Shown piece by piece: positions 2,064-57,008 of a stretch of DNA of 64,000 bases (position 1 is its first letter; each line of letters starts with the position of its first letter). The notes below the pieces were generated by a model. It saw nothing but the letters and a program-made list of their open reading frames with translations, was not told where the DNA came from and searched no databases. This DNA is from Arthonia radiata (taxonomy: Eukaryota > Ascomycota > Arthoniomycetes > Arthoniales > Arthoniaceae): contig PSQN01000012.1 in assembly GCA_002989075.1 (NCBI GenBank), positions 2,182,480-2,246,479 on the forward strand. The letters run 5' to 3'. The position numbers and the translations under genes are program-made.

Positions 2064-4228
2064 CTAGATGATTCTTGTGTCCAGGGTAGGCATCCAATCG
2101 TAGATGACGCTATTTCTTACTCCTCCGAAAGACGCGATTCGACGGTAGCTGGTGTGGCTGGCCGGTTCGAGCACAAGCCCGCAGTATACGGGATACAGAG
2201 CATTCGGGACCCACTGCATAATCACAGCCCGTATCAACCGAACATCTCCCTTGGGAGCGGCGCCGAAGCAGTCAGCGGCTACGTCGCGAGCGAAGCCGAC
2301 TTCGCAGCCGGTGCCTGGCTCTAACGCAAACAGCCTGCCGCCAGTGGCGTCGTCGTCGTTTTGTTCCGGGGCCCAGAAAGCGTCAACCGTAGGTGCTCGA
2401 ATGACTACATAACCCGCGGACGCATCGCCGAACTCATGATCATCTTGCCCGTGCTCCACATGCATCTCAACCACTTCAGCGATGAAGTCGGACTCATTAA
2501 GGTTGTAGTACCCGACGCCAGCGTCGATTGCCGCCCACGACCACGATGGTGCTCGGTACACGGTAGGTCGTGGCTTCAGTGTCTGCCCTGCCGATTCGAA
2601 CGCTCTCCACGACATGCACTGCAAGGCTAGCTTGGACCTAGGGGAGCAATGTCAGCGCGAATGGTTCTGTACAGCATCTTAACTGGTTACAAGAGCATAT
2701 GAGCCGATTACTCTGAACCAATGCCTCCAGACGGTTGGCTGAAATGACTGTACAGAAGCACGGAATCAAATGTGGGATGCTCTGCGACTTACCACACGCC
2801 AACGCAGTACATTCCCAAATCGGCACCCCAAGCGTCTGAGAATACTTCGGCAACGCCAGCGAGAGCGACGAGCTTATCAGTGGGCCTCGTTAGCGTACGA
2901 TGCGAGTAGTCGTCTACGATCTCTAGCCACATCCTGCCTACAGTCTCGTTGTATGGCCGCAACTTTCCACGTGGGCCCTGGACTGTCGACCCGGATGTTA
3001 TCCGTGAGACGTATCGCTGCTTGAGAGGTGATGGGCTATCTATACCCTTGTTCCTGCGCGGCTCGCTCATCTCTACTTGCACTTGCTGGCACTGCCAGAT
3101 CGGTCCTGCTCTGGTGAACATGATGAGGCGAGGCGACAAAAGGCGCTCTTCCAACGTCCAGGCCCGTTTATTCACAGGCTCATCACGAGGATGGTAACTG
3201 CTTGGACCTTTCTTGCCGCTGAACTCGAGATGGAATACATCAGAGCCCTGTATCGGAGCATCGGTGAAAGGTACTACTTCAGGACGAGGAGTAAATTCGC
3301 TGTGAACACTGGCCGCTTTGGATGCGACAACCGTGACGTAAGTTTTCTGGAAGATACTACGCATATTGCGAATCTCCTTTTGTTTGTCTTCAACCGAATC
3401 CTGGACTATGCAGAGCGCATCGATCCAGATATATCTGATTCCGATCAGTTGGGTGAAGCAGATCGCTTCTTTCATGGCTTGCGGCAATTGATCGAAGGCG
3501 AGTCCAGTTCTAAAATCTGCCATGTTCGATTCCGTCAACATCAAGTTGTCCAAGCCACCCCAGCAATATGAAAGCGCAGTATAGGCAGCGTGTTCACCAG
3601 GCACAGAAACATGGAGCTTGACGCTACTACGAGGGGCGATGCCAGTTTTGGTAGGAGTATGAGGAGCAACATCGATCACACGCGTCGGCAATGGAGTACT
3701 CTCCCATGCCAGACAATCGTTATGGGAAGCTGTACATTCTTGCCAGCACTGGTGCATCCATTCGCCACACATCACTAATCGAGACTTCAAAGCTTTGATG
3801 CGGTCACGATCAAAAGGAGGCCGCGCCCAAGCTTCAGGTGCAATTTCTGTGACGAAAGATAGTGGATACACACCGGGATCAAGCTGCTGTGGCGGATCAT
3901 CCAACCTCTCGACGATGGCTCGTAGCTGGATTCTTACGAGATCGCGCTCTCCCGCTCTTCTGGAGCATGGAACATCGAAGACAATCTTGACGTCAGCTTC
4001 GCGAGGCTGTTGGGTCCCTCGAGCCCAGCAGCATGCTTCGACTCTTGCGCACCAGGGGCATCCCTCAGCGACGGAGCCAATGAGGTCGCCCTGGCTGACG
4101 CGATAAGTGGCCTCTTTCGGAGCTGCATCTATCTTAGACACCTGATTGTGTTCCAAGAATCGACGTAGGTGTGGAAGAAGGGTAATGTTCCTACAAAGCG
4201 CGCAGAACGACTGGTCGTTGTCGCTCAT
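2064..4228 (-). CDS. HET-domain protein, 669 aa, two exons
   Basis: Exons are complement 2793..4228 and 2064..2637, joined across a 155-bp intron with donor GTAAGT and acceptor TAG; the phase-2 junction restores a Trp codon. I chose ATG 4228 (M-S-D-N-D-Q-S-F-C-A-L-C) because the longer upstream frame has no ATG. The HET core starts near residue 216 with Y-T-A-L-S-Y-C-W-G-G and continues with I-R-Y-I-W-I-D-A-L-C-I-V-Q-D near 266, the hallmark blocks of the family. The C-terminal exon has the usual R-A-P-S-W-S-W-A block. HET proteins act in heterokaryon incompatibility and related cell-death responses; many copies in a genome have unknown partners. No NACHT or patatin neighbour is present. Confidence 0.9.
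2638..2792 (-). other. Intron of the HET gene
   Basis: 155 bp, GT-AG on the minus strand, donor GTAAGT. Splicing changes the frame from a TAA-terminated exon to the Trp-Ser rich C-terminal exon, and both flanks match the expected HET protein layout. Confidence 0.85.
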
Positions 4229-4471
4229 GTTGCACCTGGTTGACCAGATGAGACGAGGCAGTAGCGGAGCCAAAAGTAGATTGACATCATATAGTACCCA
4301 AATAAGTAAATAAGCCTTGGCCCCGCTGACGTGTGGCAGTTGGCTGTGTTTGCGAAACCACGCTCGTGCCAAGCTCAAACTTCTCCAGGCGTCTGCTTTT
4401 CATGCCTTCATGATTTCAAGATATCAGGCAAAGGCTTCACTTATTCCTCACTCCCTCTCACGTCAACCGCC
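4229..4471. promoter_or_regulatory. Divergent promoter region, HET gene and fimbrin
   Basis: 243 bp between the HET start on the minus strand and the fimbrin start on the plus strand. It must contain both 5' regions. A pyrimidine-rich stretch lies just before the fimbrin ATG. No defined operator was identified. Confidence 0.5.
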
Positions 4472-11999: not shown

Positions 12000-12986
12000 G
12001 CCGCCAACGGGCAACTGCCCGCCGGCTTGAGAACGCTTGATCCAGTGCTGGAAGCGGCTGTGAGAGGACTCGGGAAGGACCGAGAGAACGTGGGGAAAGC
12101 GTTGGGAGAGATGTAACAGGAGACTCTGAAAGCGGGCCAAGATCGGCGAGTGAGTGAGTGATTCAACGCTTGGAGGTGAGACAGCAGGAAGGGAAGTTTA
12201 GCATCTAGAAAGAGCGGATTGGGTCGGATGCAGAAGGCCGTGGATGTGCATTTCTCGAAACAAGCTGTACGCAATAACGAAGCTCAAATATAACAGCTGA
12301 TTGATCAGATAAGATTCCGTCCATGGCGCTAATCCGGTTTGAGAACACCCGCACCGTTTTCGAAAAACTTTCCAAAGCTTCCCACCACGGGAGCACAGCG
12401 GCGGACGTCCAGCGACGCATTTTTTCAAGACCCAGACGCGTGCATTCCTTGTGGAGTCATGTATAGTCAAATCTCTGGGTATGGCAGCTCTAAATGCCGC
12501 AAAGAACAGCAATCAAGTCAGGCTCCCTGACAGACGATCACGGCCGGGTTCAAGCCAAACGCAAATGCCAAAATTGTCCACGCCACTGAACAGGTGTGCC
12601 TTTACGAACGTATGTTCCGTAGCACTTGCTCAGGTGCAGCAGTCATGATGCCTGGATGTCACTTGGTAATTGTGCGATCAGTCTAAAGGGCAGTGCTCGC
12701 ATAGCTCGCGACGTTTTTATACTGAAAGAGGGTGTTTAAAATGCTGAGGCAAAAAACCATTGAGTAAGAGCTCATATAAATTCTCACAACATAACCTCTG
12801 TCCATTAGAGAGGGGATAAAGAGTGATTCCGGCTGGTGCAATCGTTGCGTGAGGAGCTGGTAATGACGAATGAGTGATTTCAGCGTTTGGGTTTTCACAG
12901 GCATGGCGACAATAGAGAGTTGAGCGATTGAGGAAGATGGCCTGCTGCAAGTATTTCAAGGGGGATCTTATACTTACCGTCTCAGC
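12000..12986. other. Intergenic, about 1 kb
   Basis: Contains the 5' region of the minus-strand DDHD gene and of the plus-strand F-box-like gene at 12987. The short frames here are unsupported; the 160-codon minus frame at 12717-13199 overlaps the plus gene and looks like its antisense shadow. Confidence 0.4.
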
Positions 12987-13547
12987 ATGGCCAGCTTCCG
13001 CATGGACATGGATGGTGCTATTCTTGTAGCGTGGCAGGCTTACTGCTACACCTTCGATACTCTCAAGTTCCTGTTCCCACCGATAATGATCAATTACCTC
13101 ACGCCGCTCAGTCTCTCCACTCCCTGCAGCAAATGGCAGTCGCTTCCGATCGAGCTTACCGTCATCATTGTGAGGCACCACATCAACAATAAATTCCACG
13201 ACCGACGCGCCCTAGAGACCATAGGATGCGGCTATAGCTACACACACCTCGAAAAGCTACAATATTCGCATGCGATCGAAGAGTGGCAACATCGATCTGC
13301 CCGTCTTGAATACATAGAGACCGTGAGCTCGCTTGCTACCGGCAACAAGCTCATTGCACACGAAATAGTAGGAGAGGCGGAGAAGCACTACACAATTTTC
13401 AAGGAAGATCTCAACGCTCTCTATAAGAAAATTCTGCGCGATCGCCAAACGTTGTCGTTGCGGAGCGTGCGGGATATCCATATGGTTGTGGAGGTATATC
13501 ATCGAGCGAAGTTGTTTGCGGACTTGATAGCGGATCTGAAGACGTAA
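12987..13547 (+). CDS. F-box-like island, member 1, 186 aa
   Basis: Unrecognised single-exon gene, first of an island of related genes up to 16.6 kb. The N-terminus is hydrophobic (A-I-L-V-A-W-Q-A-Y, then L-K-F-L-F-P-P-I-M). Near residue 50 comes W-Q-S-L-P-I-E-L-T-V-I-I-V, resembling the start of fungal F-box-like domains (L-P-x-E-L). About 60 residues later is S-L-A-T-G-N-K-L-I-A-H-E-I-V, which aligns with the same block in the other members. The next gene, 14061-14639, has the same order of parts. A shorter start at an internal Met near residue 34 is possible. No function is inferred beyond possible SCF-adaptor-like binding, which is speculative. Confidence 0.65.
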   Translation: MASFRMDMDGAILVAWQAYCYTFDTLKFLFPPIMINYLTPLSLSTPCSKWQSLPIELTVIIVRHHINNKFHDRRALETIGCGYSYTHLEKLQYSHAIEEWQHRSARLEYIETVSSLATGNKLIAHEIVGEAEKHYTIFKEDLNALYKKILRDRQTLSLRSVRDIHMVVEVYHRAKLFADLIADLKT

Positions 13548-14060
13548 TGCATGCAGCTTGGGGTACAGGTCCGTGAAGCTGTTTCATACAGGTATGTGGC
13601 TCGCTGATCGGTGTGAATGAACATCTTGAGCCCTAACTCAATCTATGTAGGACCAAGCGCGCAGTCCAGCCTAGCAAGATGTTTGTACGGTGCCCCAACT
13701 TGGATCTATCCATGTCTTGTTTTGGGTTCTTACGTCTATCATGGCTGAACCGCTTCTTCATCGCGCTTTTAACTGCCTCAGATGAAAACGATTTGCTTCC
13801 AAAAATGCGTACAAATGAGATGGCAGCATTCAAGCAGACAGCACTTGTTCCTTAGTCCGAAGTAACAAGTGACGAAGTGTAGCTGAAGCGCTCTAGCTCT
13901 TGGCCATTTGAGGTCACCATAAGTGTCAAACAACGACCACTTCGCGACGTGACGCACAACTGACCTCGGCTGTTTTAAGATCAAATTTACACACATATTT
14001 CCGCTGTTTGCTCTCGCGTCACCCATCAAAATTCCAGCTCCTCAATCTTATGCCGCCATC
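13548..14060. other. Spacer between members 1 and 2 of the F-box-like island
   Basis: 513 bp with no supported gene. It presumably contains the terminator of member 1 and the promoter of member 2. No duplicated promoter block was evident by eye. Confidence 0.4.
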
Positions 14061-14639
14061 ATGAGATCGTTAATCTTCAAGTTGTACGCTACTTTCATCA
14101 CAGGCTTCTTCGCTATCATCTGTCATATCTCTTGCCATCTCCTCGATCTCATCCTATTCGGTCTTCCGCACGAGATGTCTCGAGCGCCGTCACATCCGAA
14201 AGAATTTCACCCATCCTCTAGATGGCAGACTCTTCCACTCGAACTCACCATCATGATTGTGCGAGAGCATCTCGAGAACCACTTTCAAGAATTCTACGCT
14301 GCGGAGATGATAGACGAAATCGGGCTTAACAGGCAGGCTACCATTGAACAGGCCTGGTGCCGCGAACAAATTCTCATTAAATACGCTAACACAGCCGGAA
14401 TGCTCGCGCTCAGCAACAAGCTCTTACACACTCAAGTCGAATTCGTATTGGAAGAACATACTCGAGCAATAGCGGAAGAGATCGAGTCTCTATCTCTGGA
14501 TGGTTTCAAACGGCCCCCGAGCATGATAATATTGAATAGGAACTGTCGATCCGAAATCGAGTTTCGAGTGCTCTTCTGGCAGAGAGCAAGGCGGCAAAAT
14601 GGGACGCTGAAGCGACGACTGTCCATGGTACCGCCATAA
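14061..14639 (+). CDS. F-box-like island, member 2, 192 aa
   Basis: Single exon, same strand as member 1 and clearly related. The first 35 residues are strongly hydrophobic (F-I-T-G-F-F-A-I-I-C-H-I) and could be a signal anchor. The F-box-like start is S-R-W-Q-T-L-P-L-E-L-T-I-M-I-V near residue 55, compared with K-W-Q-S-L-P-I-E-L-T-V-I-I-V in member 1. The second shared block is G-M-L-A-L-S-N-K-L-L-H-T-Q-V. The C-terminal part (E-F-R-V-L-F-W-Q-R-A-R-R) has a looser match in member 1. A membrane-anchored F-box-like protein would be unusual; topology is inferred only from composition. Confidence 0.68.
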   Translation: MRSLIFKLYATFITGFFAIICHISCHLLDLILFGLPHEMSRAPSHPKEFHPSSRWQTLPLELTIMIVREHLENHFQEFYAAEMIDEIGLNRQATIEQAWCREQILIKYANTAGMLALSNKLLHTQVEFVLEEHTRAIAEEIESLSLDGFKRPPSMIILNRNCRSEIEFRVLFWQRARRQNGTLKRRLSMVPP

Positions 14640-15529: not shown

Positions 15530-16045
15530 TCAATTTAGAGGAGTGTCAAAAATTTCTGATGGGAGAAACATGTCGGACGCTGAGTCACACTGAGTGTCTT
15601 TGATGTTGCAATGATGATGTCCATTCCCAATCTTCTCCTCATCGCGAGAATGAGCTATGCACCGAAGTCGAATGTACAGCCGATCAATCAGATTTCTGCA
15701 GTGATTCGCCCTCCTTTCAATGAATTGCGAAAAGTATCGGTTCCGATAGAGTTTGTGCCGTTCACCAAGCTTCCTCAGTCCTCGCTCGTGGGCCCTCGCA
15801 TGCTGGTGATGCCTCTCAATGATCGAAAACAGCGTGTCTAGAAACACTCCGTTGACGTTTGCAAGCGACAAGACCAGGTGCTTGTATGCTCGAATAGCAA
15901 TGCCGAATCCGTCGGACCTGCTTCCGAGGCGTGGGATTGTGGAGCATCCGTCCATCATGCGCTCAAGTGCGGTATCGAGAGCGGGAGCGAGGATGAGGGC
16001 GATGAGTTCGTTTGGCAAAGTCTTGCTGTTTGGTTGAGCTGGCAT
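15530..16045 (-). CDS. F-box-like island, member 4, 171 aa
   Basis: Single-exon minus-strand gene, ATG 16045, 67 bp upstream of member 3 on the same strand. The N-terminus goes directly into K-T-L-P-N-E-L-I-A-L-I-L, the F-box-like start, with no hydrophobic lead. The second shared block is L-S-L-A-N-V-N-G-V-F-L-D-T-L-F, followed by I-I-E-R-H-H-Q-H-A-R. The rest is basic, with R-N-R-Y-F-S-Q-F-I-E-R-R. Relation to member 3 is clear by eye. Function unknown. Confidence 0.65.
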   Translation of the reverse strand: MPAQPNSKTLPNELIALILAPALDTALERMMDGCSTIPRLGSRSDGFGIAIRAYKHLVLSLANVNGVFLDTLFSIIERHHQHARAHERGLRKLGERHKLYRNRYFSQFIERRANHCRNLIDRLYIRLRCIAHSRDEEKIGNGHHHCNIKDTQCDSASDMFLPSEIFDTPLN

Positions 16046-16282
16046 GGTACTGATGTTTGTGTGGGTTGCTTGTTAGATTGTTTGATTGTTTGATCGTTTG
16101 GAATCTTACAGGAGAGTGGGCGTCTCTCTAGAGGCACGTAGCAGGATAAATACCTACTCGATAGTGCTCAGACAGCTCTCCTCTGCTTCATGGGTTACTA
16201 AGTCAGCTGTGACTTCATCGTGACAGAACCAATGCAATCATGGAGTCTCTCTCTCTAACGCACTCCGATTGCGGGAGCTCGG

Positions 16283-45230: not shown

Positions 45231-45540
45231 TCAGATCACTTTCTTGACCTCCACCTTCTGCACCTTCACACCCTCCCACGTCGTCTCCCCAGCGTCCCAA
45301 CCTAGATCGACCCGCAGAATGTTCTCGCCGGTTGACATGAATAACTTCGTTTTGAAGTCGTACGGGTAGCCCTCCGATGCATCTATCGAAATCATGAGTG
45401 GTGGTGTGGCTAACCCTGAGCGAGGAGAAGAAGTATTAAGAGCAGAGAGCAAGAACCAGTGGCATACCTTCAACATTGATGACGAGTGAAGATGAGGGCG
45501 CAGAGGCGAATACAAAGCATATCCGCCACCTGTCGTTGCC
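45231..45540 (-). pseudogene. Minus-strand C-terminal exons of an unrecognised gene
   Basis: Two exons join well: an exon ending at 45468 (donor GTATGC) and 45231..45415, across a 52-bp intron. The joined text reads L-V-I-N-V-E-G-L-A-T-P-P-L-M-I-S-I-D, then Y-P-Y-D-F-K-T-K-L-F, and ends G-W-D-A-G-E-T-T-W-E-G-V-K-V. It looks like a genuine folded beta-rich C-terminus. Upstream on the minus strand a stop at 45541-45543 closes the frame and no ATG exon is clear before the plus-strand gene at 45995. It may be a gene remnant, or a gene with more exons than I can resolve. Confidence 0.4.
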
Positions 45541-45994
45541 TTACGACGCTGCGATACTTGGTCACAGCCAACGAAAGTCTACTTATTACGAACCATATGG
45601 AGTGCTTCGCACGCGCTACTGAGGCTTCCGGCAAGCTTTGGATCCGTTCGTAAAGCTTGTAAAAGCTGTGAGATCTGCACAATGCCACCGATATCAATGT
45701 GGTCCGAACCGCGATGGTGTCAATATGACCACTAAAAACCGCGTATGCAGCGATCGCTGAGGCGAAACGTAGCAACCTGATTGCGATTTCTAGCCTTGCT
45801 TGAAAACAGGAAAACATTACAAGGTACCACTTCGTTTGCTTACTGGTAACAAAAGCCCCACCCCGCATGGTCATTCTTTGGTCTATAAGATACTCACTAC
45901 TTCCCGTAATTACACTCGAGACACTCTCCTCCCAGCAAGAGTCACAAGATTGCCAAGACAAAGTTCCACTGGTTGTCACAACTTCACAACTCTC

Positions 45995-46579
45995 ATGGAC
46001 GACGTGCGCCAAATTGCGCTGGATTACGCTGTCTGTCTTTCTGCCAAGGAAATGCAGACGGCATATCAAATCATCACCACAATCGATTCCATGACCTATG
46101 ATGATGAACATCGTACTCTTCTTGAAGCTATGAAGCAACACAGAAACAGCAAGAAGCTATATGCTTCTATAGAAGTCGCAAACGACCACGCCGGTGACAT
46201 CATACTTGAGACTGTCAAGCGCAGTGTATCGTTGTATACCCCCGAACAGGAACGAGGTCTGGAGCAGCAAAAGCAAATGAGTGACGCTCGAGAGGACATT
46301 CATGCGGCGGAATTTGTTGCGAGCGAGCTCGAGCGTTGGGGCCTCAATGTTCGAATTGAACCGGTCTCGGTTCCCCGTCCAAACGCGGCTCGAGAGATCA
46401 TTGAACAACTTCGTGATCGCCACATTCGTCAGGGCCAGAGCACTACAAACGATGGGTCCAGGCCGCCGAACATCTACGATGAATTGTACGGCGTGCTGGT
46501 GCCTATTGTGGGCATTCCAGGAACGACTGCCCTGAGCAGCTGCACTATCTTCGACAGGCGCTCGGAAGGGCCCTTTTGA
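45995..46579 (+). CDS. AN-domain island, member a, 194 aa
   Basis: Single exon, ATG 45995. First of six plus-strand relatives. It starts M-D-D-V-R-Q-I-A-L-D-Y-A-V. The shared helix is K-K-L-Y-A-S-I-E-V-A-N-D-H-A-G-D-I-I-L, which aligns with K-L-F-T-S-L-K-T-A-N-E-C-G in member f and I-F-K-T-F-T-E-A-S-E-A-A-F in member d. A long charged helix follows (E-R-G-L-E-Q-Q-K-Q-M), then a strand L-N-V-R-I-E-P-V-S-V. It is the most diverged plus member. Function unknown. Confidence 0.62.
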   Translation: MDDVRQIALDYAVCLSAKEMQTAYQIITTIDSMTYDDEHRTLLEAMKQHRNSKKLYASIEVANDHAGDIILETVKRSVSLYTPEQERGLEQQKQMSDAREDIHAAEFVASELERWGLNVRIEPVSVPRPNAAREIIEQLRDRHIRQGQSTTNDGSRPPNIYDELYGVLVPIVGIPGTTALSSCTIFDRRSEGPF

Positions 46580-46896
46580 TTGGAATGTCCAGGAATATTG
46601 CGAGCTTGAAAGGCAATGAATGATTGATACCTTTCGATAATGCTCACGGTCTTGTGAAGATGTTTACTTTGTTTCACTGAGAGCTGTCGCATTATGAAAA
46701 TTTGGAAGACGGAACGGCCTGTCGGTCGCGATGGGCCAGGCCGCAACCAACAGGTAGGGTCTGAGCAGTTCATGTCTTGAGTATTTGATGAACTATGTCC
46801 ATGTGTTGCGAAAGCAGGGGGTGTTTGATACCAGGCGTTCAAGCCGCTCTAGAATAGCTCTATCCTCTGCGAGAAGATACACCTGCCGGAAGTTCA
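46580..46896. other. Spacer between members a and b
   Basis: 317 bp, no supported gene. A minus-strand frame of 122 codons spans it but has no motif. Confidence 0.4.
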
Positions 46897-47301
46897 ATGA
46901 CTGGCGTCGTCCCAGCATTTTCCCTCCAGGTCGACGGGAGCGCCAAGCGCTTCGACCGCATGGCGAAGCAGGATTCCGGCCAGCGCAACCTGATCAAGGA
47001 CTATCCAAACCTCAGCAAAACGTACGAGTCCCACGGTAGGGCTGAGAATGTCGCGTTCGAGCTGCTCGGCGTGCTGGTGGATGATGTCCAGCGCGGCAGC
47101 ATTGCGCCTCTCCCCTTGGACCGTATTCTCATTCGAGCTTCGTTTGCCGGCAAGGATCGCATCACTTCTATCCGATTCAACGGCATGGATACCGAGGTCG
47201 TTGCCATTCAACAAACGTCCGAGACTGATGATATGGCCCACTCGTCACAAGGGTTTCTGACTAATGCGAGCCAACAGCAAATTTTACCGGCAAACAAGTG
47301 A
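46897..47301 (+). CDS. AN-domain island, member b, 134 aa
   Basis: Single exon. Starts M-T-G-V-V-P-A-F-S-L-Q-V-D-G, corresponding to the first strand of the shared domain. The helix reads N-L-S-K-T-Y-E-S-H-G-R-A-E-N-V-A-F-E-L-L, nearly parallel to N-L-T-R-I-Y-E-S-P-Y-S-A-R-N-G-A-F-E-V-L in member c, its closest relative. The later strands I-T-S-I-R-F-N-G-M-D-T-E-V align with the G-A-E-I-E-V part of member e. No signal peptide or membrane segment. Confidence 0.65.
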   Translation: MTGVVPAFSLQVDGSAKRFDRMAKQDSGQRNLIKDYPNLSKTYESHGRAENVAFELLGVLVDDVQRGSIAPLPLDRILIRASFAGKDRITSIRFNGMDTEVVAIQQTSETDDMAHSSQGFLTNASQQQILPANK

Positions 47302-47791
47302 GTACGATGAAGACCGAACAAGAGTTCTGATCCTGCAAAATGTCAAGTCTTTGCGACCTTCCTCTCGCGGTCAAGGAACATAGGGGAAGCGCAGGCTTGC
47401 GTTCTCGTAACTCTGGTGGGTAGTTCTTGCGCCTCCATGCGTGATGCTCAGAGTAACCTCACCCCATTATGAATTTTCTTGCATACCTCGCTTCTACGGA
47501 CCGCTCCTGTCTGGCCATCCACTGGATGTGTTTCAACCTACGGCTGTTTGAGGCAAGCCTAGTGTAGCATCGTCCACAACCGCGCATAGATGTAGTACTG
47601 CTCCCCATTCAGAGGCGTCGCATGGAACGCCTTGTTCGTGATACGTTTCGCACGATTCAGTATATCTAGTCTCAGTGCACCGTCGTTCGGTACATAGTTC
47701 TCCATTACTTACGTTGAAACAAACACCTCGAAGTCGATAAGCCTTCACACTCTGAAGACGTGAACACAATCTCACTCGCTCGCTCAACGAA
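47302..47791. other. Spacer between members b and c
   Basis: 490 bp, no supported gene. Presumed terminator of b and promoter of c. Confidence 0.4.
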
Positions 47792-48354
47792 ATGTCTGAA
47801 ACTGCTAAGGCAAGTCATATTAAAGAGTTGTCCGTGTCACTACTGATGCATTTAGCAAAAGCTCCCGAAGCTACAAGGCCGATGATATTGTGACGGCCTA
47901 CCGCGTCAAATACGGGCCTGCACCTCAACATTTTGATCTGGGCGACACCAAAACGGAGCCAAACAAGGCTATCACCGACCATGAGAATCTCACACGAATC
48001 TACGAGTCTCCCTACTCCGCCAGAAACGGCGCCTTCGAAGTCCTCAATGCTTGGATGCGTGCACTCTCCGACGAGGTCGCGAAAGACAAAGCACCTGATG
48101 GAATGATCTCGGTACAGGCTGGCGGAATTGATAAAGGCTCGCTGTTCTGGGTGCATTGCAATGATCTCCGCATCTCCGTGTACAAGGTGAAGGCTATGCG
48201 CAATCGAGCCATGCATATGGGTCTTTTGGGGTGGCCTGATGACATGGACAAGCTGAAGGAAGCTTCGCGCAGATGGGTGGCTATGATGAAGGCGCAACAC
48301 CGCGAGAGGGAGATACCTGCTCGAGTTGAACTGGATGCAACGCTGGAGGTTTGA
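47792..48354 (+). CDS. AN-domain island, member c, 164 aa, GC-AG intron
   Basis: Proposed exons 47792..47809 and 47878..48354. Exon 1 codes M-S-E-T-A-K and ends at a GCAAGT donor; the acceptor is ACAAG before A-D-D-I-V-T-A-Y-R-V. Member d has the same plan, with exon 1 M-S-E-S-I-M. The shared helix is N-L-T-R-I-Y-E-S-P-Y-S-A-R-N-G-A-F-E-V-L and the second strand pair L-F-W-V-H-C-N-D-L-R-I-S-V. The frame from GTG 47890 is certain; the small first exon is inferred from d. A different acceptor (TTTAG at 47855) would break the frame. Confidence 0.6.
47810..47877 (+). other. Proposed GC-AG intron of member c
   Basis: 68 bp from GCAAGT to ACAAG. GC donors with an otherwise perfect consensus are a known minor class. 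The alternative that the first exon is not used cannot be excluded. Confidence 0.45.
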
Positions 48355-48646
48355 TCTTTGATGCAAGCCTCGCTTCTTCGTAGCTTCTGCCAAATTTTCT
48401 CCTCACTTCATCGTAGTGTCCATGCGACCATTTCCGTTGTCCGCATCCCACTCCAGAAACAGCAAACAGAGCCGATGCGCACGTTGTAAGATGCGCGCTT
48501 GTTTGCACCGCTACCACTTCAAACGTCTTCGCTTCACGTTGCTCAACTAATAGGGCTCGCCGACGCGCTGATTAAGCTCAGAGTCTTCATCATCACATCG
48601 AACTTGTCCGAAAACCACGATCATATAACGGTAAGATTAATTTGTA

Positions 48647-49175
48647 ATGTCAGAAAGTATCATGGTGAGGATCCTGGTCACCTTCATGCAGCAGTGGCTG
48701 ACTCTAATAGTCCGACGTCGCCCTCTCTCAACACGCCCCTGACGACTTCATTATCGCTTACAACCTGAGGGTCAACTTCTCAACGAAGTCGCGTGACGCC
48801 GTTGGCGCATGGATCGGAACCGCAGCTATGTACGCCGAAGCCCAGGAAGCGGTCAAAGCTGCAGTCGAGCCTCACGAATACGACCGTAAAATATTCAAAA
48901 CTTTCACAGAGGCCTCAGAAGCTGCCTTCCGCATCATCGCCGCCGCCATGCAGAGTAGGATGCAATATGGTATTGAACAACTCGGTGGCGAACAGTGTCA
49001 TCGAGTAACAGCCAATGAGCACCAACATGAGGATGAGGGCGAGCTCGCATGGATCCGCTTGGAGGGCGTCATGCTGGTCTTGATCGAGCGAATGCAGATC
49101 TTGCCTTCTAAGCTTGGATATGGTGAGGATGCTTCTACTTCCAAAGTTGAAGATAAAGCCTGGTCACTGAGTTGA
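48647..49175 (+). CDS. AN-domain island, member d, 160 aa
   Basis: Exons 48647..48664 and 48711..49175, intron 46 bp (GTGAGG to AATAG, with GCTGAC branch). Exon 1 is only M-S-E-S-I-M. Exon 2 begins S-D-V-A-L-S-Q-H-A-P-D-D-F-I-I-A-Y-N-L-R-V, whose D-D-F-I-I-A-Y matches D-D-I-V-T-A-Y in member c. The helix is K-I-F-K-T-F-T-E-A-S-E-A-A-F-R-I-I-A-A-A-M. The strands E-L-A-W-I-R-L-E-G-V-M-L-V and M-Q-I-L-P close the domain. The shared tiny first exon supports common descent of c and d. Confidence 0.68.
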
Positions 49176-49671
49176 ATAAGTCAAGCAGTATTCGCGCCGG
49201 AAAGGCCGAGCTAAGCCGTGACTTCACGAATGTCTTTCCAACCATCATATATCAAACCCTATTATTTTCATCCCTGTCTTTTTCACGCGAATCATTCTGC
49301 GGCGGAAAGCTGTTGCCAATACGCGACAGGCTTTTCTCTTATATAGCTGAAAGAAGCGGCGCGAGTTTGAATCCATGCTTCCAATTGTTGGATGGAAAGA
49401 AAGGCATCTCACGATCACCTCTACTATCGACCCCCACTTGCTGCATCTACTTTGGCAACGACAACCTGATTCGGCAAGACTTGTTATACTAGGTCTAGCG
49501 TGTTCCACCCGTTGCAAATTCCATGCCAACTCCGGCTTTTGAAACGACCTCGTCTTCTTCCTACCAACCTCAAAGCCCAGCGTCGACTGTTGCCACACAC
49601 ACGACACTCCGCTCACCTCTCTCAAAGTACGTTTCTTTGGCGCAACAAATACCACATTGCTAATCGTCTAG
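49176..49671. other. Spacer between members d and e
   Basis: 496 bp, no supported gene. Pyrimidine-rich stretches in the last 150 bp suggest the promoter of e. Confidence 0.4.
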
Positions 49672-50450
49672 ATGGCCGAGCTCACCAACTTCTCGCGCGC
49701 GGACCTCAAGCCCGTGTTCTGCATCAACGTCTCACCGGCCAAGACCGCGGAGAACAATGTCACCTATAGATGGGGAACTCCTCTCTTCGCCACCCCCTCC
49801 TGCGTCACGCCCACAGATTCCGGCACAATCGACGATTATGCCTCAAGCTTCGCCCAGAAGCTTCAATTCCATGAAAACACTTCCATGCTCTTCGACGATC
49901 TCCATACAGCCAACAAAGCCGCGTACGAGATAATCCAGCCAGCGGTCGATGACGACTACCAGCTCTGGTTGAACCAAGGCGGAAAGTCCACTTTCCAGTC
50001 TATCCGTCGCATCACCGGCGGGAATTCCGAGCCGGTCAAGATCGAGTACAAGGGTGCCGAGATCGAGGTGGAGAAGATCTTCATCCTCCCGATTGCCACT
50101 TCGACTCCCTCCACGGCCGTTCCTATCCCGCCAACAACCGTCAATCGTGAGAAGGGCCACGGAAAGCGCGTCCCTGTTCCAATCTCATCTGTTGGAGGCA
50201 ACCCTACCGCCAACAATGGCAAGGTCTGCTGGTGTGGTTCTGGATTTGTGAGTCAGAGCCTGTCTCAAGTATAATTGAGCTAACATGATAGTAGGGATGC
50301 CGCATGCACCTCGACGAAGCCCGCCGCATGTCCAACAACGCCCGCAACGGGCGCGCGTGGGATTTCGGCGGCGAAGACAGCTCGTGGGACTGCCGCGTCT
50401 CCGCCAGCGATGACGGCGGAGATCGTTACGGCGGCCAGTGGGGATATTGA
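49672..50450 (+). CDS. AN-domain island, member e, 243 aa, with C-W-C-G-S-G tail
   Basis: Exons 49672..50247 and 50295..50450, intron 47 bp (GTGAGT to GTAG). Starts M-A-E-L-T-N-F-S-R-A-D-L-K-P-V-F, parallel to F-K-P-E-D-L-T-P-V-Y in f. The helix is M-L-F-D-D-L-H-T-A-N-K-A-A-Y-E-I-I and the strands V-K-I-E-Y-K-G-A-E-I-E-V followed by I-F-I-L-P. Unlike its relatives it has a linker and a C-terminal addition, K-V-C-W-C-G-S-G-F-G-C-R-M-H-L, then D-S-S-W-D-C and a Gly-rich end. The Cys cluster may bind metal. Its first half recalls SEC-C motifs, but the rest does not fit. Confidence 0.72.
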
Positions 50451-50961
50451 CGAATCCTGCAGTCACTGCGCAGCGTTTCGCGCGAAGGCGTAGTTGGACG
50501 GTCTGCCATCAATGAGATTTGCGAATCCCTATATGAGATATAGGAGAGGATGGACCTGACGAGCAACAGCTTCATCATAGATAGACCTTTCATGCCCTAG
50601 ACATGGAATGGCGTTACTCGGAGTCCATTGTGTCTTTCAAATCTGCTTCATGGTTTTGTGCTAGAGTCTACTCTAATGCCTCTGCTTTCAGCTCCTCTAT
50701 CGTGAGTGAAGGCTTGAGAAGAATCTCCATCCCCATGTTCTCCCTTTTGTGTACGTCTAAGTCCACATGCACTGCGCGGCGGAGCGTGACCTGGTCCTGC
50801 GCATGCGGATCTTCACCTACCTTCCCTGTAGCCTGCAATCTACGTAACTGCCTACCTCAGCATCGCTCACTTATATTCCCTACTCTGGTCTTCCTGTATC
50901 CATCTTCCGCCTCCAAATACAGCCTTTTCACCTGCTTTTCTAGAACTACCAATCCGCTGCG
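50451..50961. other. Spacer between members e and f
   Basis: 511 bp; the last 250 bp are pyrimidine-rich. A plus frame of 120 codons at 50603-50965 runs into the f start but is a composition artefact. Confidence 0.4.
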
Positions 50962-51468
50962 ATGACCTCACGCACTAGCACGATGCCGACCGTGCAAAAG
51001 CCAAGCGTAATTGCGTTCAAGCCTGAGGACCTTACGCCCGTCTACCGCATCATCGTCACTCATGACAGCACACCCGACCTTTTGAACTTCACCTTGCAGT
51101 TGTTCAGAGGCCACGAAGACACCAGGAAACTGTTCACCAGCTTGAAGACTGCCAATGAGTGTGGTATGTCGATGGTTCTGGAGGCACTACACAACCATAT
51201 CCAATTCTGGATGGAGACAGCAGGACCTTCTGCGTATAAAACGGAATTGCGCCAGTCTAAGAATGAGCAGGGGCTTTTGAGGATCCACTTTCGGGGTGCG
51301 GTCGTCGAAGTGAAGGAGCTCTACATATTTGAGAGAGCGTGTGAGCGCTGCGATAGGAGCGAGGAAGATATCAACCGCTTCTTTAATCTCCTTCCAAATA
51401 CCGATGATATCCTAGCAAGAGCAGCTTGGAGAAAGCATTTTAATAGCGAGATGCATGTTCCGGCTTGA
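50962..51468 (+). CDS. AN-domain island, member f, 168 aa
   Basis: Single exon. Starts M-T-S-R-T-S-T-M-P-T, then F-K-P-E-D-L-T-P-V-Y-R-I-I-V-T-H-D, the first strand. The helix is R-K-L-F-T-S-L-K-T-A-N-E-C-G-M-S-M-V-L and the strands L-L-R-I-H-F-R-G-A-V-V-E-V-K-E-L-Y-I. It is closest to member e (N-T-S-M-L-F-D-D-L-H-T-A-N, then G-A-E-I-E-V-E-K-I-F-I). A C-E-R-C pair follows. No signal peptide or membrane segment. Confidence 0.7.
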   Translation: MTSRTSTMPTVQKPSVIAFKPEDLTPVYRIIVTHDSTPDLLNFTLQLFRGHEDTRKLFTSLKTANECGMSMVLEALHNHIQFWMETAGPSAYKTELRQSKNEQGLLRIHFRGAVVEVKELYIFERACERCDRSEEDINRFFNLLPNTDDILARAAWRKHFNSEMHVPA

Positions 51469-52274
51469 CTGACAAATTACAGGAGATGTTTCGGGCGACG
51501 GAGGATAATGTATCAGACCACGCCTCTGAACCGCGTTCTACGCCAACTTTGGCCACGCCCGAGAGCGACGACTGAGCCAGCATAATTGCAACCACTGGAA
51601 ATGATGGTCAGTCTCGTGGTCATTTCGAGGTCGCGGTCGCCGCGTCACGAGCCGGGGGTTCAAAGAACGACTGACCAAGGTGACGGATGACAAATCAACG
51701 TCAAAGGGTCGATAGCAAACATGTCACACCTAGTAAGGGTCCAAAAAGATTTATACCGTAACGAACTACTCTGCCGCAATGATCAAACGCTCCGTAGCGG
51801 ATGTCCGCCGTCTTCGTGTCAGGCGTGAATCTGCATTGCTTGACATGATCACCGCTTTAGCGATCACCTTACCTAGACAAGCCATGATATACTAGTTTCA
51901 TGTTGTTGCCAGGCATACGGCTTTGGTTTCCGAGCGTGAGCGCGATCATGCCGAACGTTCAAAGGCTGCTGTCGGTGGCTATGGACATCGTCTCGAAAAG
52001 CGTGGAAACGTGTAGAGCTGATACGTGATCACGTTTCTCCTCAACAGAATGCGCCACATACAAACGCAGAGAAGGTGGGTGAACGCGGTGAACAGCGCAG
52101 CGGTATCAAAGCTCCGATGCTGACTTTGGCCACACAACACACTCTCAAGTGGCGTGGTTCAACTCACTAAGCGTTGATCTCTCACGATCTCTCACGAAGC
52201 ACGATATTTAGCTGTTGACTTTGTCATCTCTTGCCTGCCAACGAGCGCTTCAGGACCTCGTTGTCCCACAACCA
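51469..52274. other. Spacer between plus and minus parts of the AN-domain island
   Basis: 806 bp between converging genes with no supported frame. A local direct repeat CGATCTCTCACGA-like occurs around 52177-52199. Confidence 0.4.
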
Positions 52275-53388
52275 TCATCCCCAAATCCCCTCACACACTC
52301 TGATGAGCCCCTTGCCTTCCCCATTCCGCACTGAGATCGTGACCGTGCCATCGCCAGCAACCTGCCACAAGAAGCCGTCCCGTCGGTCCTCCTTGAGCTT
52401 GGCTGGAGAAATGACTTCGTGCATGCCATATTTTGTGAAGACATCGCGGTAGACCCTAGAAGCGAGCTGGAAAGCATGGGTGTTGGCACGATGGATATCG
52501 GTGTAAACGATTGGGGCCCCGCACAAGCCGTCGGTCTTCATATGAACCAACGTGTAAAGTTTGGCATAGCTTGGAGTGGGGACGGCGGCATTGACCGGTT
52601 GCGCGTTGGAAATGGCGCTGCTTGTCATTCTCGGGGCGTGCGTGCTGGCAGTTACAGGCGGGGATTGAGTGGTTGATGGCTGGGCTGAGTTTGCAAACAT
52701 GCTCTTGGCTGCGGGAGCTGCTTCTAAGGGATGGGTTTGCCCTTCCAAGAGGCGCTGAATCGATGTATGATGCGCAGATGACGCACGCCAGACACTGCGT
52801 GAGGATGGGAGTGGCTTGACATTGCCGAAGATGTTTTCAGGGGAGTACTTTGACGGTTGCGATGTCGAGCCGGTCTGCGAGAAAGGGCCAAATGATTGCG
52901 CGACTCCATATGCTTTATTGTCTGAACGGAGGAAGGAACCGGACGGAGCAGTGCTGGACCCGTCTGCGGCCAACGCATCGAAGTCGCCTGAGCCTCGTAG
53001 ACGCATCTCCTCGAAAGAGAACGACCTGGACGGCGAACTGAGCCCAATGCTTTGATACACTGCGGTGGTCGTTCCTACTTTCTCTACAAACGGGCTAAAT
53101 GGAGTGGTAGCTGCCGTTTCAAGCGCAATACGAAGTGCGAGTGGTGAAGATGTAATTTGTGTAGAGGATCCGTGGAATCCGTGATCTGTTGAAGGATCTG
53201 ATTAGCAAGCATTGCAATGCTGAGTGATAGGAAGTAAACGCACTTGACACTATTTGCCCACATGAAAGTTGAAAGATTGGGTTGTTGGTTCCTCTTGAGT
53301 TACCGTTGAAGGGATCGCCAGCATGGGGCTGACCGAAGCCCGTCGGATTTGAGGCCGTTGAAGTGGCGCTGGTATTGTTGCCACTCAT
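52275..53388 (-). CDS. AN-domain island, member g, about 349 aa
   Basis: Proposed exons complement 53262..53388 and 52275..53197, intron of about 64 bp (donor GTGGGC, acceptor ATCAG; a second acceptor at 53185 would remove four residues). About 240 residues of Ser/Thr/Pro-rich low-complexity sequence precede a C-terminal domain of about 100 residues: Y-A-K-L-Y-T-L-V-H-M-K, then I-H-R-A-N-T-H-A-F-Q-L-A-S, then G-F-L-W-Q-V-A-G-D-G-T-V-T-I-S-V. This is the same strand-helix-strand order as in members a-f. It pairs best with member h. The 5' end is uncertain. Confidence 0.58.
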
Positions 53389-54309
53389 TGCAGCGCTCGG
53401 AAGAGCAACTCCGATCACGGAGTCTGGTGACAGACGCTGTTTTTGAATTGCTCAGGCGGTGATGAAGGTTCTGAGATGGTTTGATGGATTATGCTGGAGC
53501 GATAGGTGTCAGCACAATGCATTCCAAAAGCGAGTGTGTTTAGCTTTCAGACTGTATTCAGACAGCGCCGCCATTCCAACGACAGACAGGCCCTCAAGAA
53601 CCAGGAGGAGAAAGAGTGTGACGGCTGTAGACTTACCTTTTGCTTGATGGATTGTGCTGTTGGAAGTCGAGATATCGTAGGTGGTGATGACTTCAAGGTT
53701 TGGCCTATCCGACGTATTGTGCAAAGATCTGAGCTCCTAGGATGGAGAAGCTGGAAAGCTCTGGCAGGTGCAATGTTGGAAGTGGGGAAAGGATGAAGTT
53801 GCCTGGTCAAAGGTGTTAGATCGATGAGATAAATTCAAGGCAACAGGACTTGGTGCTTTCGTAGTGACACTTCGGCAGGGGGAGCGCAGGCAGTGAGTGA
53901 AGCAAAGGTGACACACTTACGCTCTCGTGAAGCCACCTTTTGTTCGGCCCAAATCCTGAGCGCACCTCTAACTAATAATGTGACTAAGATGCAGAAGAGT
54001 ACCCTTCACGTCGAGTGCTGGTAATCAGTGGCGCTTGGAGCTTTGTCTCAACGTCAGAGAAATAGGTCCATTTGCCGTGAGTTGCTGCCTAGTCCAGTGA
54101 GGCAATGCAGGGTTGAGGGCGAGAAGTCAAGAGCGATGAATGGTGATGAGGAGTAGGACAGTCGCGCAACAATGAAGAGAAAGGCGGCAAACAGAGATTC
54201 ATATAGCTGATGGTATTGAATCGGACTGTAGCAGGCCTTTGATGAGCTTGCAACGCCACCGTAGCCATCATTACTGCGAACAACACACTGGCCGCACGGA
54301 TTGAAAAGG
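53389..54309. other. Spacer between members g and h
   Basis: 921 bp. Holds the 5' region of g and the 3' region of h. No supported gene; several overlapping minus frames lack motifs. Confidence 0.4.
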
Positions 54310-55038
54310 TCAATCCAGCGCCATCGACTGAGTCCACACCCTTGCCCACGCGAAGCCGGAATTGATGCGAAACGCAATTGCATGCTCTTTGTGGATATTC
54401 CAGAAGATGCCGGGGTCCGCAATCTGCTGCATTTCCTCCGTGGAAGCGACGTTGCGAACTTCTCGCATACGGCTGACTTGACTGAAGTGATTCATCACAA
54501 ACTGCCACGCCGCGCTTTGAGCAGCAAAGGCGTCACTGAAGGAACCGACAACCTTTAAGATCGCTGCCCTGTCTGGCTGAAAGGGGCGCTCGTCAAGCAC
54601 GACAACCCATAGCTTAGCAGCTTGCTGTGCTGGAGCGTCTGGCGTCGCTGAACGAGAATCGGATCCATGTGTGGTTTGAGCAGTACCTGCGATTGATAGA
54701 CTATCTAGCTGATCATTGCAGTCGTCGGTTCTTGGAGAAGTCTGCAGGGAGCTGACTCGATCTGCCGGCTCGATCTTTGGTGATTGACTCTCGCAAGTGG
54801 AGGGAGGTGATGATCTGGAGTCCTTGCCAGTGATATCAAAAGCGGCTATGTGATCGTTTGCTGCATCGTTGGGTGCTTGAGACGGACTGGAGCGGAGTAG
54901 CGTCTTGCTCACGATAAGTTCGGTAGGCGGTGATGTACGGCCCTCATTGGAAAGCTTACGCTCAGGTTGAAGCTGCGGGTAAACCGGACCGAAAAGAGCA
55001 TTGTAGTCGAAGTCCTCCTCGTCAGATGAGCGAGTCAT
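54310..55038 (-). CDS. AN-domain island, member h, 242 aa
   Basis: Single exon from ATG 55038 (M-T-R-S-S-D-E-E-D-F-D-Y-N); the longer upstream frame lacks an ATG. The first 130 residues are acidic and Ser-rich. The C-terminal domain reads A-K-L-W-V-V-V-L-D-E-R-P, then S-F-S-D-A-F-A-A-Q-S-A-A-W-Q-F-V, then I-F-W-N-I-H-K-E-H-A-I-A-F-R-I-N-S-G. These align with A-K-L-Y-T-L-V-H, H-R-A-N-T-H-A-F-Q-L-A and F-L-W-Q-V-A-G-D-G-T-V-T-I-S-V in member g. It lies 235 bp from the SHMT stop. Function unknown. Confidence 0.6.
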   Translation of the reverse strand: MTRSSDEEDFDYNALFGPVYPQLQPERKLSNEGRTSPPTELIVSKTLLRSSPSQAPNDAANDHIAAFDITGKDSRSSPPSTCESQSPKIEPADRVSSLQTSPRTDDCNDQLDSLSIAGTAQTTHGSDSRSATPDAPAQQAAKLWVVVLDERPFQPDRAAILKVVGSFSDAFAAQSAAWQFVMNHFSQVSRMREVRNVASTEEMQQIADPGIFWNIHKEHAIAFRINSGFAWARVWTQSMALD

Positions 55039-55272
55039 CCTTCTCAAGCGGCGTGTTTTGTCAATGAATAGGAATCGAGTCGGGAGCGTGGGCACTGCTT
55101 GAGAGCTGCTGGCAGTCACATGTCTTGGCGGTGAACCCACTCTGGTACTAGGCCGGATCGGTACCAAAATTAGGAGTCGTCCCAGTGTTGAGCGACGATG
55201 CAGGTCAGCAGCACTGCAGTCTTGCAATCTGTGTGCAATTGCCACTAAGGCGACCCGGACAGGTCTTGCTTT

Positions 55273-57008
55273 TCACTTCTCCCAAGGCAGACCGAACGTT
55301 CCAACCCAGCTTGATACCTCTTGACGAAGCTCAATTAGCTCAGTAATGTTCTCGCCCTCGCCAATGTATTCTTTGAAGGCAGCCACACTCCCTGGATTCT
55401 TGCGCCCCTCCTTTTCTTTCGCTTCACGCGCCTGCTTGTCGACGCGCTTGGCGATGTTGATTGCTCGATGAACGACATCTCCCACCCGTTCAAAGTCCGT
55501 CGGCTGAAAACCTCGTGTCGTCATAGCAGGTGTGCCCATGCGCAGTCCGCCTGGCTTCATCGCAGAGACATCTCCGGGGACGGTGTTCTTGTTGCTAGCG
55601 ACGCCGGCAAGCTCGAGAATCCGCTCGACGCGTGCCCCGTCAATGCCTGCAGGTTTGAGGTCAACCAGAACCAGGTGGTTGTCGGTGCCCCCACTGACAA
55701 CAGCGTAACCGAAGCCACCCTTATCTTCAGAATCGCCGAGACGTTTTGCAAGAGCTTTTGCATTAGCGAGCACGGCTTGTTGATACTCACGGAAACTGGG
55801 CTGCTGAGCTTGGTGCAAAGCCACAGCGAGCGCCGTGATTGTATGGTTGTGAGGACCGCCCTGGTGTCCGGGAAATACTGAGCTGTTGATAGGTCCTTCC
55901 AAATCGTACGACTCTTGCTTGCCTTTTGCATCAGTCCGTCGTACGCCCTTTCGAAAAAAGATCATGGCTCCGCGAGGACCTCTCAGACTCTTGTGTGTGG
56001 TTGTGGTTACTACGTCTGCCTGCTCGAAAGGCGATGGGATAACTTTGCCGGCCACAAGACCGCTAATGTGGGCCATGTCGGCTAATAGGTAAGATCCAAC
56101 AGAGTCCGCTATCTGCTTCATGCGGGGATAGTCGATCAACCGCGAGTATGCGGACGTGCCTGCGATGATGATTTTGGGTCGGTACAAAGTCGCCAGTTCA
56201 TGTAGTTTGTCGTAATCGATCAGACCGGTCGATTCGTCGAGTCGGTAAGGCAAAGTCTCGAAGTATTTGGAGATGGCCGAGATCTTTTTGGTGGGTGTTT
56301 GATAGCCATGTGATAGGTGGCCGCCATGAGGCAAGTCAAGGCCCATTATCCGGTCGTGGGAATTAAGAAGTGCTGAGTAGGCATAGAGGTTGGCCGGTGA
56401 GCCGGATAGCGCTGTCTTGCATTAGTACGGCAAGCCTGCTCAATCTCAGATCTTGGTGTGACGAACACTGTACATTGACGCCCCATTCCTCCTCCTTAAG
56501 ACTGAATACTTCAAGCGCTCGACGCTGGCACAGACGTTCAGCTTCATCGATGAACTCGTTGCCACCGTAATACCGAGCCCCAGGGTATCCCTCGGAGTAT
56601 TTATCTAATGGAGGTCTGCGTCAGAACTTGGGCGCGACTGGAGATTTGAAATGTATACTTTGCATTACACTTCCCAACGCATCCAGGACGGATTGAGAGG
56701 TGAAGTTTTCCGACGGGATGAGATTTATGAAGTGCTTCTGCCGGTGCTTTTCTTTTTGGATGATGTTGAAGACAGTCGGATCTGCTTCTTCGAGATTGGA
56801 CGAGAGCATCTGCGCGCGTTGTTAGCTGTGGTATACTAGATTCCATGTGCCGGGTGCTCACCTTATGTTGGACATCCGTGGACATGCATCTGCCCCGCCG
56901 CCATGTCTGAAGTGGTCGTGCTTGCTGGGTTAATATTTGAGGGGTAAATATGCTCGGATGAGGGTCATGACGACGTAGAAGTAGTCTGCTGGCTCTTGCG
57001 GTTGTCAT
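55273..57008 (-). CDS. SHM1: Mitochondrial serine hydroxymethyltransferase, 524 aa
   Basis: Exons complement 56862..57008, 56659..56809, 56467..56604 and 55273..56411; introns of 52, 54 and 55 bp. The last donor (GTTCGT) is weak but phases close and give V-N-V-Q-S-L-S-G-S-P-A-N. Residues 1-42 are Arg-rich without acidic residues apart from one Asp, a mitochondrial presequence. Core motifs are [21 protein letters not shown] and the PLP lysine in [13 protein letters not shown] near residue 280. The enzyme interconverts serine and glycine with tetrahydrofolate, feeding one-carbon metabolism. All PLP motifs are present. Confidence 0.96.

What the first reader, a model, noticed from the sequence alone, without database searches (positions are those of the whole stretch)
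45995..55038. Eight-gene island of an unrecognised small domain
Six plus-strand genes (a-f) and two minus-strand genes (g, h) share one order of parts: a first strand (V-Y-R-I-I-V, A-Y-R-V, K-L-Y-T-L-V-H, K-L-W-V-V-V-L), a helix with an A-N-x-x-A-F-like core (T-A-N-K-A-A-Y, T-A-N-E-C-G, A-R-N-G-A-F, A-E-N-V-A-F, E-A-S-E-A-A-F, R-A-N-T-H-A-F), and a strand pair (G-A-E-I-E-V, G-A-V-V-E-V, D-L-R-I-S-V, T-V-T-I-S-V). Additions differ: low-complexity N-termini in g and h, a Cys cluster in e. Tandem birth with quick divergence is typical of genes for conflict or self-recognition, but that role is inference.
Basis: partly seen in the sequence, partly recalled or inferred. Interest (0 to 1): 0.75.

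Follow-up and report, generated by a model that had tools for sequence, protein, structure and literature searches.

The report
Tandem array of diverged orphan genes
Six neighbouring genes on one fungal chromosome (probably seven, perhaps eight) are strongly diverged copies of one small protein domain that matched no family in the libraries searched; the family is real, but what it does, including any role in conflict or self-recognition, is not shown.

Summary
Genes a-f (45995-51468, plus strand) are one family: when each is left out of a profile built on the other five, it is still the best non-member among 941 window ORFs (E 1e-10 to 2.2e-3); none of 240 control trials did better than E 4. 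Their cores are only 12-28% identical. Gene g matches the a-f profile weakly; gene h is linked only through g. A family consensus searched over the 33.5 Mb genome returned these six and nothing else at E up to 10, but a calibration shows it would miss two of six comparably diverged copies. No hit passed a curated cut-off in Pfam or NCBIfam; PHROGs, PADLOC and PDB gave nothing significant for the members tried. A model of f (core blocks pLDDT 67-88) gives strand, helices, three strands, without a convincing fold match. No signal peptide is evident and only an alanine column is invariant in three of four alignments, so a small intracellular binding domain is my best guess. The conflict role has no support here, and the divergence is undated. 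It is an ordinary kind of thing, a tandem array of orphan paralogues, in a clean single-locus form 75-84 kb from a telomere.

The parts
45995..46579 (+). gene a, 194 aa; domain core 46043-46372; the C-terminal tail scores poorly as coding, so the 3' model may be wrong
   Evidence: left-out E 4e-6; tail -0.013
46897..47301 (+). gene b, 134 aa; core 46897-47214
   Evidence: (left-out E 2.2e-3); closest to c (0 of 1000 shuffles)
47792..48354 (+). gene c, 164 aa; proposed exon 1 47792-47809 (6 codons), GC-AG intron 47810-47877, exon 2 47878-48354
   Evidence: (left-out E 3.5e-6); splice sites read from sequence only
48647..49175 (+). gene d, 160 aa; proposed exon 1 48647-48664 (6 codons), GT-AG intron 48665-48710, exon 2 48711-49175
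   Evidence: (left-out E 3.8e-7); same intron place and phase as proposed for c
49672..50450 (+). gene e, 243 aa; exon 1 49672-50247, proposed intron 50248-50294, exon 2 50295-50450; Cys/His cluster CWCGSGFGCRMH formed across the splice
   Evidence: left-out E 1e-10; frame to the stop
50962..51468 (+). gene f, 168 aa; residues 8-168 were modelled
   Evidence: (left-out E 2.1e-9)
52275..53388 (-). gene g; C-terminal domain 52571-52278 (probable relative of a-f) after a Ser/Thr/Pro/Gly-rich N-terminal part; the upstream extension (exon 1 53388-53244, intron 53243-53186) is proposed and does not score as coding
   Evidence: codon score of domain part 0.100, exon 1 -0.002, 53007-53183 -0.114
54310..55038 (-). 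gene h, 242 aa; low-complexity N-terminal part, C-terminal domain 54624-54313 linked to g only (possible relative)

Best explanation
A local tandem array of paralogues of one small intracellular domain. Shown: a-f descend from one ancestral gene and lie side by side on one strand; no other copy as close to the family as e, f, a or d was found in this genome. Predicted: a domain of strand, helices, three strands. Inferred: the array arose by repeated local duplication; the copies then lost sequence identity, either over long time or quickly under RIP, keeping the hydrophobic core and the A-N helix; the domain works as a small protein- or ligand-binding module rather than an enzyme, and the differing additions (a Cys/His cluster in e, long low-complexity N-terminal parts in g and h) give each copy a different partner or address. 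g is probably, and h possibly, an older branch of the same array.
For: Leave-one-out recovery of 6 of 6 against 0 of 240 control trials better than E 4. Proposed six-codon first exon and phase-0 intron at the same place in c and d. Consensus query returns 6 matches, all in the island, from 33.5 Mb. In each of a-h the named frame has the best codon score of its six frames (e exon 2 only narrowly). Model of f with pTM 0.57 and block means of pLDDT 67-88 over residues 11-120. Only an Ala column is invariant across a-f in three alignments, so no shared catalytic polar residue is evident. No signal-like N-terminus by hydropathy. With all eight genes, neighbours resemble each other more than in most orders: 462 of 40320 reach the observed sum.
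Against: For a-f alone neighbour similarity is not significant (84 of 720 orders), so head-to-tail duplication is not proven. A fourth alignment, of longer pieces, shows an invariant Asp as well as the Ala, so the claim of no shared polar residue depends on the alignment. h shows no direct link to a-f. Codon scores are not a sharp test: an antisense ORF opposite b (46897-47244) scores 0.160, above a, f, g and h, while the kinase, one of the training genes, scores 0.002. No direct evidence on function, expression or relatives in other fungi. Fold searches gave nothing usable.
Confidence: 0.6

Rival explanations
1. The island is a conflict or self-recognition locus: copies diversify under selection to tell self from non-self, or to meet a parasite.
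For: Tandem array, strong divergence, position 75-84 kb from a telomere, no catalogued family. c has a weak, sub-cut-off Pfam hit to EDS1_EP, a domain of a plant immune protein (E 0.1, cut-off 23.1 bits, score 12.7), which I take as chance.
Against: Pfam recognised no HET, NLR, nuclease or pore-forming domain in the island proteins; the HET gene found in the window is about 41.6 kb away. Genes with ordinary functions flank the island: a protein kinase and serine hydroxymethyltransferase. No population data.
Confidence: 0.12
2. Secreted effector-like small proteins that expanded in tandem, as proposed for small secreted proteins of nematode-trapping fungi (PMC3828140, passages seen).
For: Small, tandem, no Pfam domain.
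Against: None of the eight proteins starts with a signal-peptide-like hydrophobic stretch: the highest 12-residue hydropathy average starting within the first 24 residues is 1.32 (b), then 1.26 (a), and 6 of 8 are below 1.1. A dedicated predictor was not available.
Confidence: 0.06
3. Chance: short open frames with loosely similar motifs picked by eye.
For: Motifs are short and degenerate; h is not supported directly.
Against: Searches exclude it for a-f.
Confidence: 0.02
4. Two unrelated tandem families side by side: a-f on the plus strand, g-h on the minus strand.
For: hhalign of the two groups is inconclusive (probability 1.9%); h has no direct link; g ranks only 1 to 4 among non-members; architecture differs; g and h have the same spacing from the A-N-like motif to the last-hairpin Trp, 41 residues, against 44 and 47 in c and d.
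Against: g matches the a-f profile in the A-N helix at an E below all 150 random-ORF control trials and above all its shuffles; the low-confidence model of g has a similar order of elements.
Confidence: 0.3

Closest known systems
Tandem arrays of orphan paralogues in filamentous fungi, e.g. small secreted proteins of nematode-trapping fungi (PMC3828140; only passages seen)
   Same: Duplicates side by side, no Pfam domain, strong divergence; the paper proposes tandem duplication followed by rapid divergence through RIP.
   Different: No secretion signal evident here; no RIP bias in the island itself (TpA/ApT 0.56 against a mean of 0.59 over 9-kb windows).
SEC-C motif (recalled) as a comparison for the C-terminal cluster of e
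   Same: CxCGSG followed by Cys and His.
   Different: Spacing is shorter than in the recalled motif, and Pfam gives no hit to e at E up to 1.
Dynein light chain LC8 (order of elements recalled; rows 40, 45 and 46)
   Same: Order strand, helices, several strands.
   Different: E 0.41-0.49, TM-score at most 0.26, rmsd about 10: not a fold match.
Small viral proteins in BFVD (e.g. UPI00204D22CA, no name given, and J7Q7I0, uncharacterised)
   Same: Small folds partly superposable, TM by target 0.55 and 0.49.
   Different: E 0.049 and 0.28, 14% identity; probably a simple topology that recurs, no sign of descent.

Membership tests
One paralogue family a-f | Each member recovered by a profile of the other five | tested here: met
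   6 of 6, E 1e-10 to 2.2e-3; controls 0 of 240 below E 4
One paralogue family a-f | One fold in all members | not tested
   Of a-f only f was modelled; the second of two structure jobs went to g
Same family, extended to g | Recovered by the a-f profile | tested here: inconclusive
   E 0.39, second non-member; 0 of 2000 shuffles reach it, 1649 scored; hhalign inconclusive
Same family, extended to h | Recovered by the a-f profile | tested here: not met
   248 of 1932 scored shuffles reach its score; not listed at E up to 10 by the profile of a-f plus g; linked only through g
Any catalogued domain family | Score above the curated cut-off, or a significant E-value | tested here: not met
   Pfam: 8 of 8 proteins (g from an inner ATG, 243 aa) without a hit above cut-off, best E 0.026; two consensus sequences likewise, best E 0.029. 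NCBIfam: 8 of 8, best E 0.022. PHROGs: 6 of 6 members of a-f, best E 0.14. PADLOC: 6 of 6, none at E up to 1. g and h were not scanned in the last two.
SEC-C motif (gene e) | Pfam match | tested here: not met
   no hit for e at E up to 1
LC8-like fold | Significant structural match | tested here: not met
   E 0.41 or worse, TM at most 0.26 in the rows shown; the model itself is of moderate confidence
Secreted effector | N-terminal signal peptide | tested here: not met
   hydropathy only; no dedicated predictor was available
Conflict or allorecognition locus | Allelic diversity or presence/absence variation between strains | not testable with these tools
   no relatives of this genome are held

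The most novel reading that the evidence does not exclude
All eight genes are one undescribed fungal domain superfamily, grown and kept at a single subtelomeric locus, in which each copy has been paired with a different partner or appendage to serve as a recognition set (self/non-self or parasite sensing).
Probability: 0.08. Interest if true: 0.7.

Novelty: new member of a known kind. Interest (0 to 1): 0.35.

Why it matters
It gives a checkable, uncatalogued domain family: six certain members with cores 12-28% identical to one another (15 of 15 pairs), yet side by side, on a chromosome whose end looks RIP-damaged. That makes it a usable case for asking how tandem duplicates survive and diverge where close repeats are mutated. 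As it stands it is one more orphan family; it would matter more if orthologues showed selection or strain variation.

Tried and rejected
A hit of g on contig C7 (E 0.26; L005) lies in a class-II cAMP phosphodiesterase gene (Pfam PF02112, E 3.7e-50); rejected as chance. A hit of b on C9 (E 2.28, one stop inside) was rejected. The 53-aa ORF 12305-12463 that leads the non-members of the a-f profile (E 0.084) was looked at, carries no family motif and was rejected; that it beats g is a result against g. RIP as a present signature of the island: not seen. DNA repeats of 20 bases or more across 45400-55600: 7 two-copy direct families of 20-29 bases and 12 inverted pairs, all short. Profile search of 116.5 kb of fetched sequence (with the window, everything from C10:2142480 to the right telomere; the first 3 kb of C10; two stray loci): no further member. 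Scans of bacterial/archaeal contigs with f and of viral contigs with e: no relative. 5.8S rRNA to place the organism: not found. Paper searches (0, 6, 3 and 0 papers) showed nothing on this family; of the listed papers only passages of one were seen. Model of g/h: mean pLDDT 43.5, not used for a fold search. My first notebook entry calls the weakest hit 'c'; its coordinates show it is a.
Full report
What the window is. The window is G000:C10:2182480-2246479 of a 33.5 Mb genome in 16 contigs. Contig C10 (2,312,852 bases) begins with CCCTAA and ends with TTAGGG repeats, so it looks like a whole chromosome, and the island lies about 75-84 kb from its right end. A HET-domain gene, short introns and the telomere repeat fit a filamentous ascomycete (inference).

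Is the family real? I translated the eight genes with proposed splice sites. Full-length pairwise local alignments against 1000 shuffles each (28 pairs) gave no shuffle reaching the score for a-e, a-f, b-c, d-e, d-f and e-f, 1 for c-d and 5 for c-e. The other seven a-f pairs were weaker, some plainly not significant (a-b 159, b-d 383, b-f 935). The better test is leave-one-out: a profile of five cores searched against 941 six-frame ORFs of the window found the sixth as first non-member in 6 of 6 cases, E 1e-10 to 2.2e-3. The same procedure on 25 sets of random window ORFs (150 trials) gave a best E of 4.0, and on 15 sets of shuffled a-f cores (90 trials) a best E of 12. Core identities run from 12.0% (c-f) to 27.9% (e-f) over 15 pairs. 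The family a-f is not chance.

The two minus-strand genes. g scores E 0.39 against the full a-f profile and 0.083 to 3.1 against the six leave-one-out profiles, below the best control trial (4.0), and none of 2000 shuffles of its core (1649 scored) reached its score. The match lies in the A-N helix (VYTDIHRANTHAFQL). Against this, g is only the first to fourth non-member in those seven lists, a 53-aa ORF without the motif stands above it in six of them, and the profile comparison of a-f with g-h was inconclusive. h has no direct link to a-f (248 of 1932 scored shuffles reach it; not listed by a profile of a-f plus g). It is tied to g by the core alignment (1 of 2000 shuffles), less so full-length (37 of 1000), and as single queries they find each other only at E 3.7 and 5.1. 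The distance from the A-N-like motif to the tryptophan of the last hairpin is 41 residues in both g and h, 44 in c and 47 in d. I rate g as probable and h as possible.

Are they genes? Codon scores were trained on ten long ORFs of the window that I chose by length and recognisability. In all nine pieces of the eight genes the named frame scores best of six (0.053 for g to 0.244 for b; e exon 2 only 0.135 against 0.133). Six other island ORFs scored -0.187 to -0.010, but one of these (53119-53388) contains the proposed first exon of g and is not a clean control. The score is not a sharp test: in the list of 165 open stretches an antisense ORF opposite b reaches 0.160, above a, f, g and h, and the kinase, a training gene, scores 0.002. 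The tail of a scores -0.013, and the proposed upstream parts of g score -0.002 and -0.114 while its domain scores 0.100, so the 3' end of a and the start of g are uncertain. c and d each seem to open with a six-codon exon (MSETAK, MSESIM) followed by a phase-0 intron, GC-AG in c and GT-AG in d. That would be independent support for common descent, though the splice sites are read from sequence alone.

Where else? Single-protein searches of the whole genome with e, f and a returned one another and nothing else at E up to 10; c, d and h returned only themselves; g and b each had one weak outside hit, both rejected. A consensus of a-f returned six matches, all in the island, E 7e-18 to 4e-9; a g-h consensus returned only g and h. 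These consensus queries match their own members by construction. A calibration with leave-one-out consensus sequences, scaled to the genome, would show e (4e-6), f (0.008), a (0.26) and d (0.45) but miss c (11) and b (87); and the first look of the genome search is less sensitive still, since b as a query did not return its neighbour c. So a copy as diverged as b or c elsewhere is not excluded. A profile search of everything from C10:2142480 to the right telomere found no further member.

What it is. No hit above a curated cut-off in Pfam or NCBIfam for 8 of 8 proteins. PHROGs gave at best E 0.14 and PADLOC nothing at E up to 1 for the six a-f members. PDB sequences gave at best E 0.3 for e and 0.43 for the a-f profile. 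There was no relative in bacterial contigs for f or in viral contigs for e. The model of f (residues 8-168, six-row alignment) has mean pLDDT 66.4 and pTM 0.57, with strand 17-27, helices 31-42, 45-48 and 54-79, and strands 89-93, 99-103 and 106-116 in model numbering; residues after 120 are mostly below 50. Foldseek found nothing at E 0.001 in PDB (best 0.064; TM at most 0.26 in the 50 rows shown) or in BFVD (best 0.005, TM by query 0.25). The g/h model failed (mean pLDDT 43.5), although its weak elements come in a similar order.

How it probably works. Only one column, an alanine, is invariant across a-f in three alignments; a fourth, of longer pieces, shows an invariant Asp too. A shared catalytic centre is therefore unlikely but not excluded. 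The N-termini are not signal-like, and hydropathy shows no clear membrane span; the highest 19-residue average, 1.59, is in the doubtful tail of a. A small intracellular binding module is my best guess; it is inference. The Cys/His cluster of e is formed across its splice junction and resembles the SEC-C motif from memory, but Pfam does not find it.

How it arose. Local duplication is the simplest reading. With eight genes, 462 of 40320 orders reach the observed neighbour similarity; with a-f alone the result is not significant (84 of 720). The island has an ordinary dinucleotide make-up, while the last 5.8 kb of the chromosome has 27% GC and TpA/ApT 1.72, a RIP-like mark. In such a genome close tandem copies would be mutated, which could push surviving copies apart without any conflict; PMC3828140 proposes this for tandem small secreted proteins (passages seen). 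Whether the divergence here was quick cannot be told without other species.

Verdict. The conflict reading is possible but unsupported.

Noticed in passing
12924-13544 and 13953-14636: Two further neighbouring plus-strand ORFs are clear paralogues of each other (local alignment score 141, 0 of 500 shuffles reach it) with no Pfam hit at E up to 0.01: a second small tandem pair of orphans in the window. A third ORF at 15533-16072 (minus) looked similar by eye but was not significant (34 and 71 of 500).
   Followed up: partly
L014 (C10:2307000-2312852): The last 5.8 kb of the chromosome, telomere repeats included, is very AT-rich (27% GC) with TpA/ApT 1.72 and (CpA+TpG)/(ApC+GpT) 0.28, a strong RIP-like signature.
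   Followed up: partly
50236-50309: Proposed splicing of e creates CWCGSGFGCRMH, a possible metal-binding cluster that resembles a shortened SEC-C motif (recalled; no Pfam hit).
   Followed up: partly
2792-4399: HET (heterokaryon incompatibility) domain gene, E 1.3e-25.
   Followed up: no
47810-47877: Proposed GC-AG intron in c at the same place where d has a proposed GT-AG intron.
   Followed up: partly
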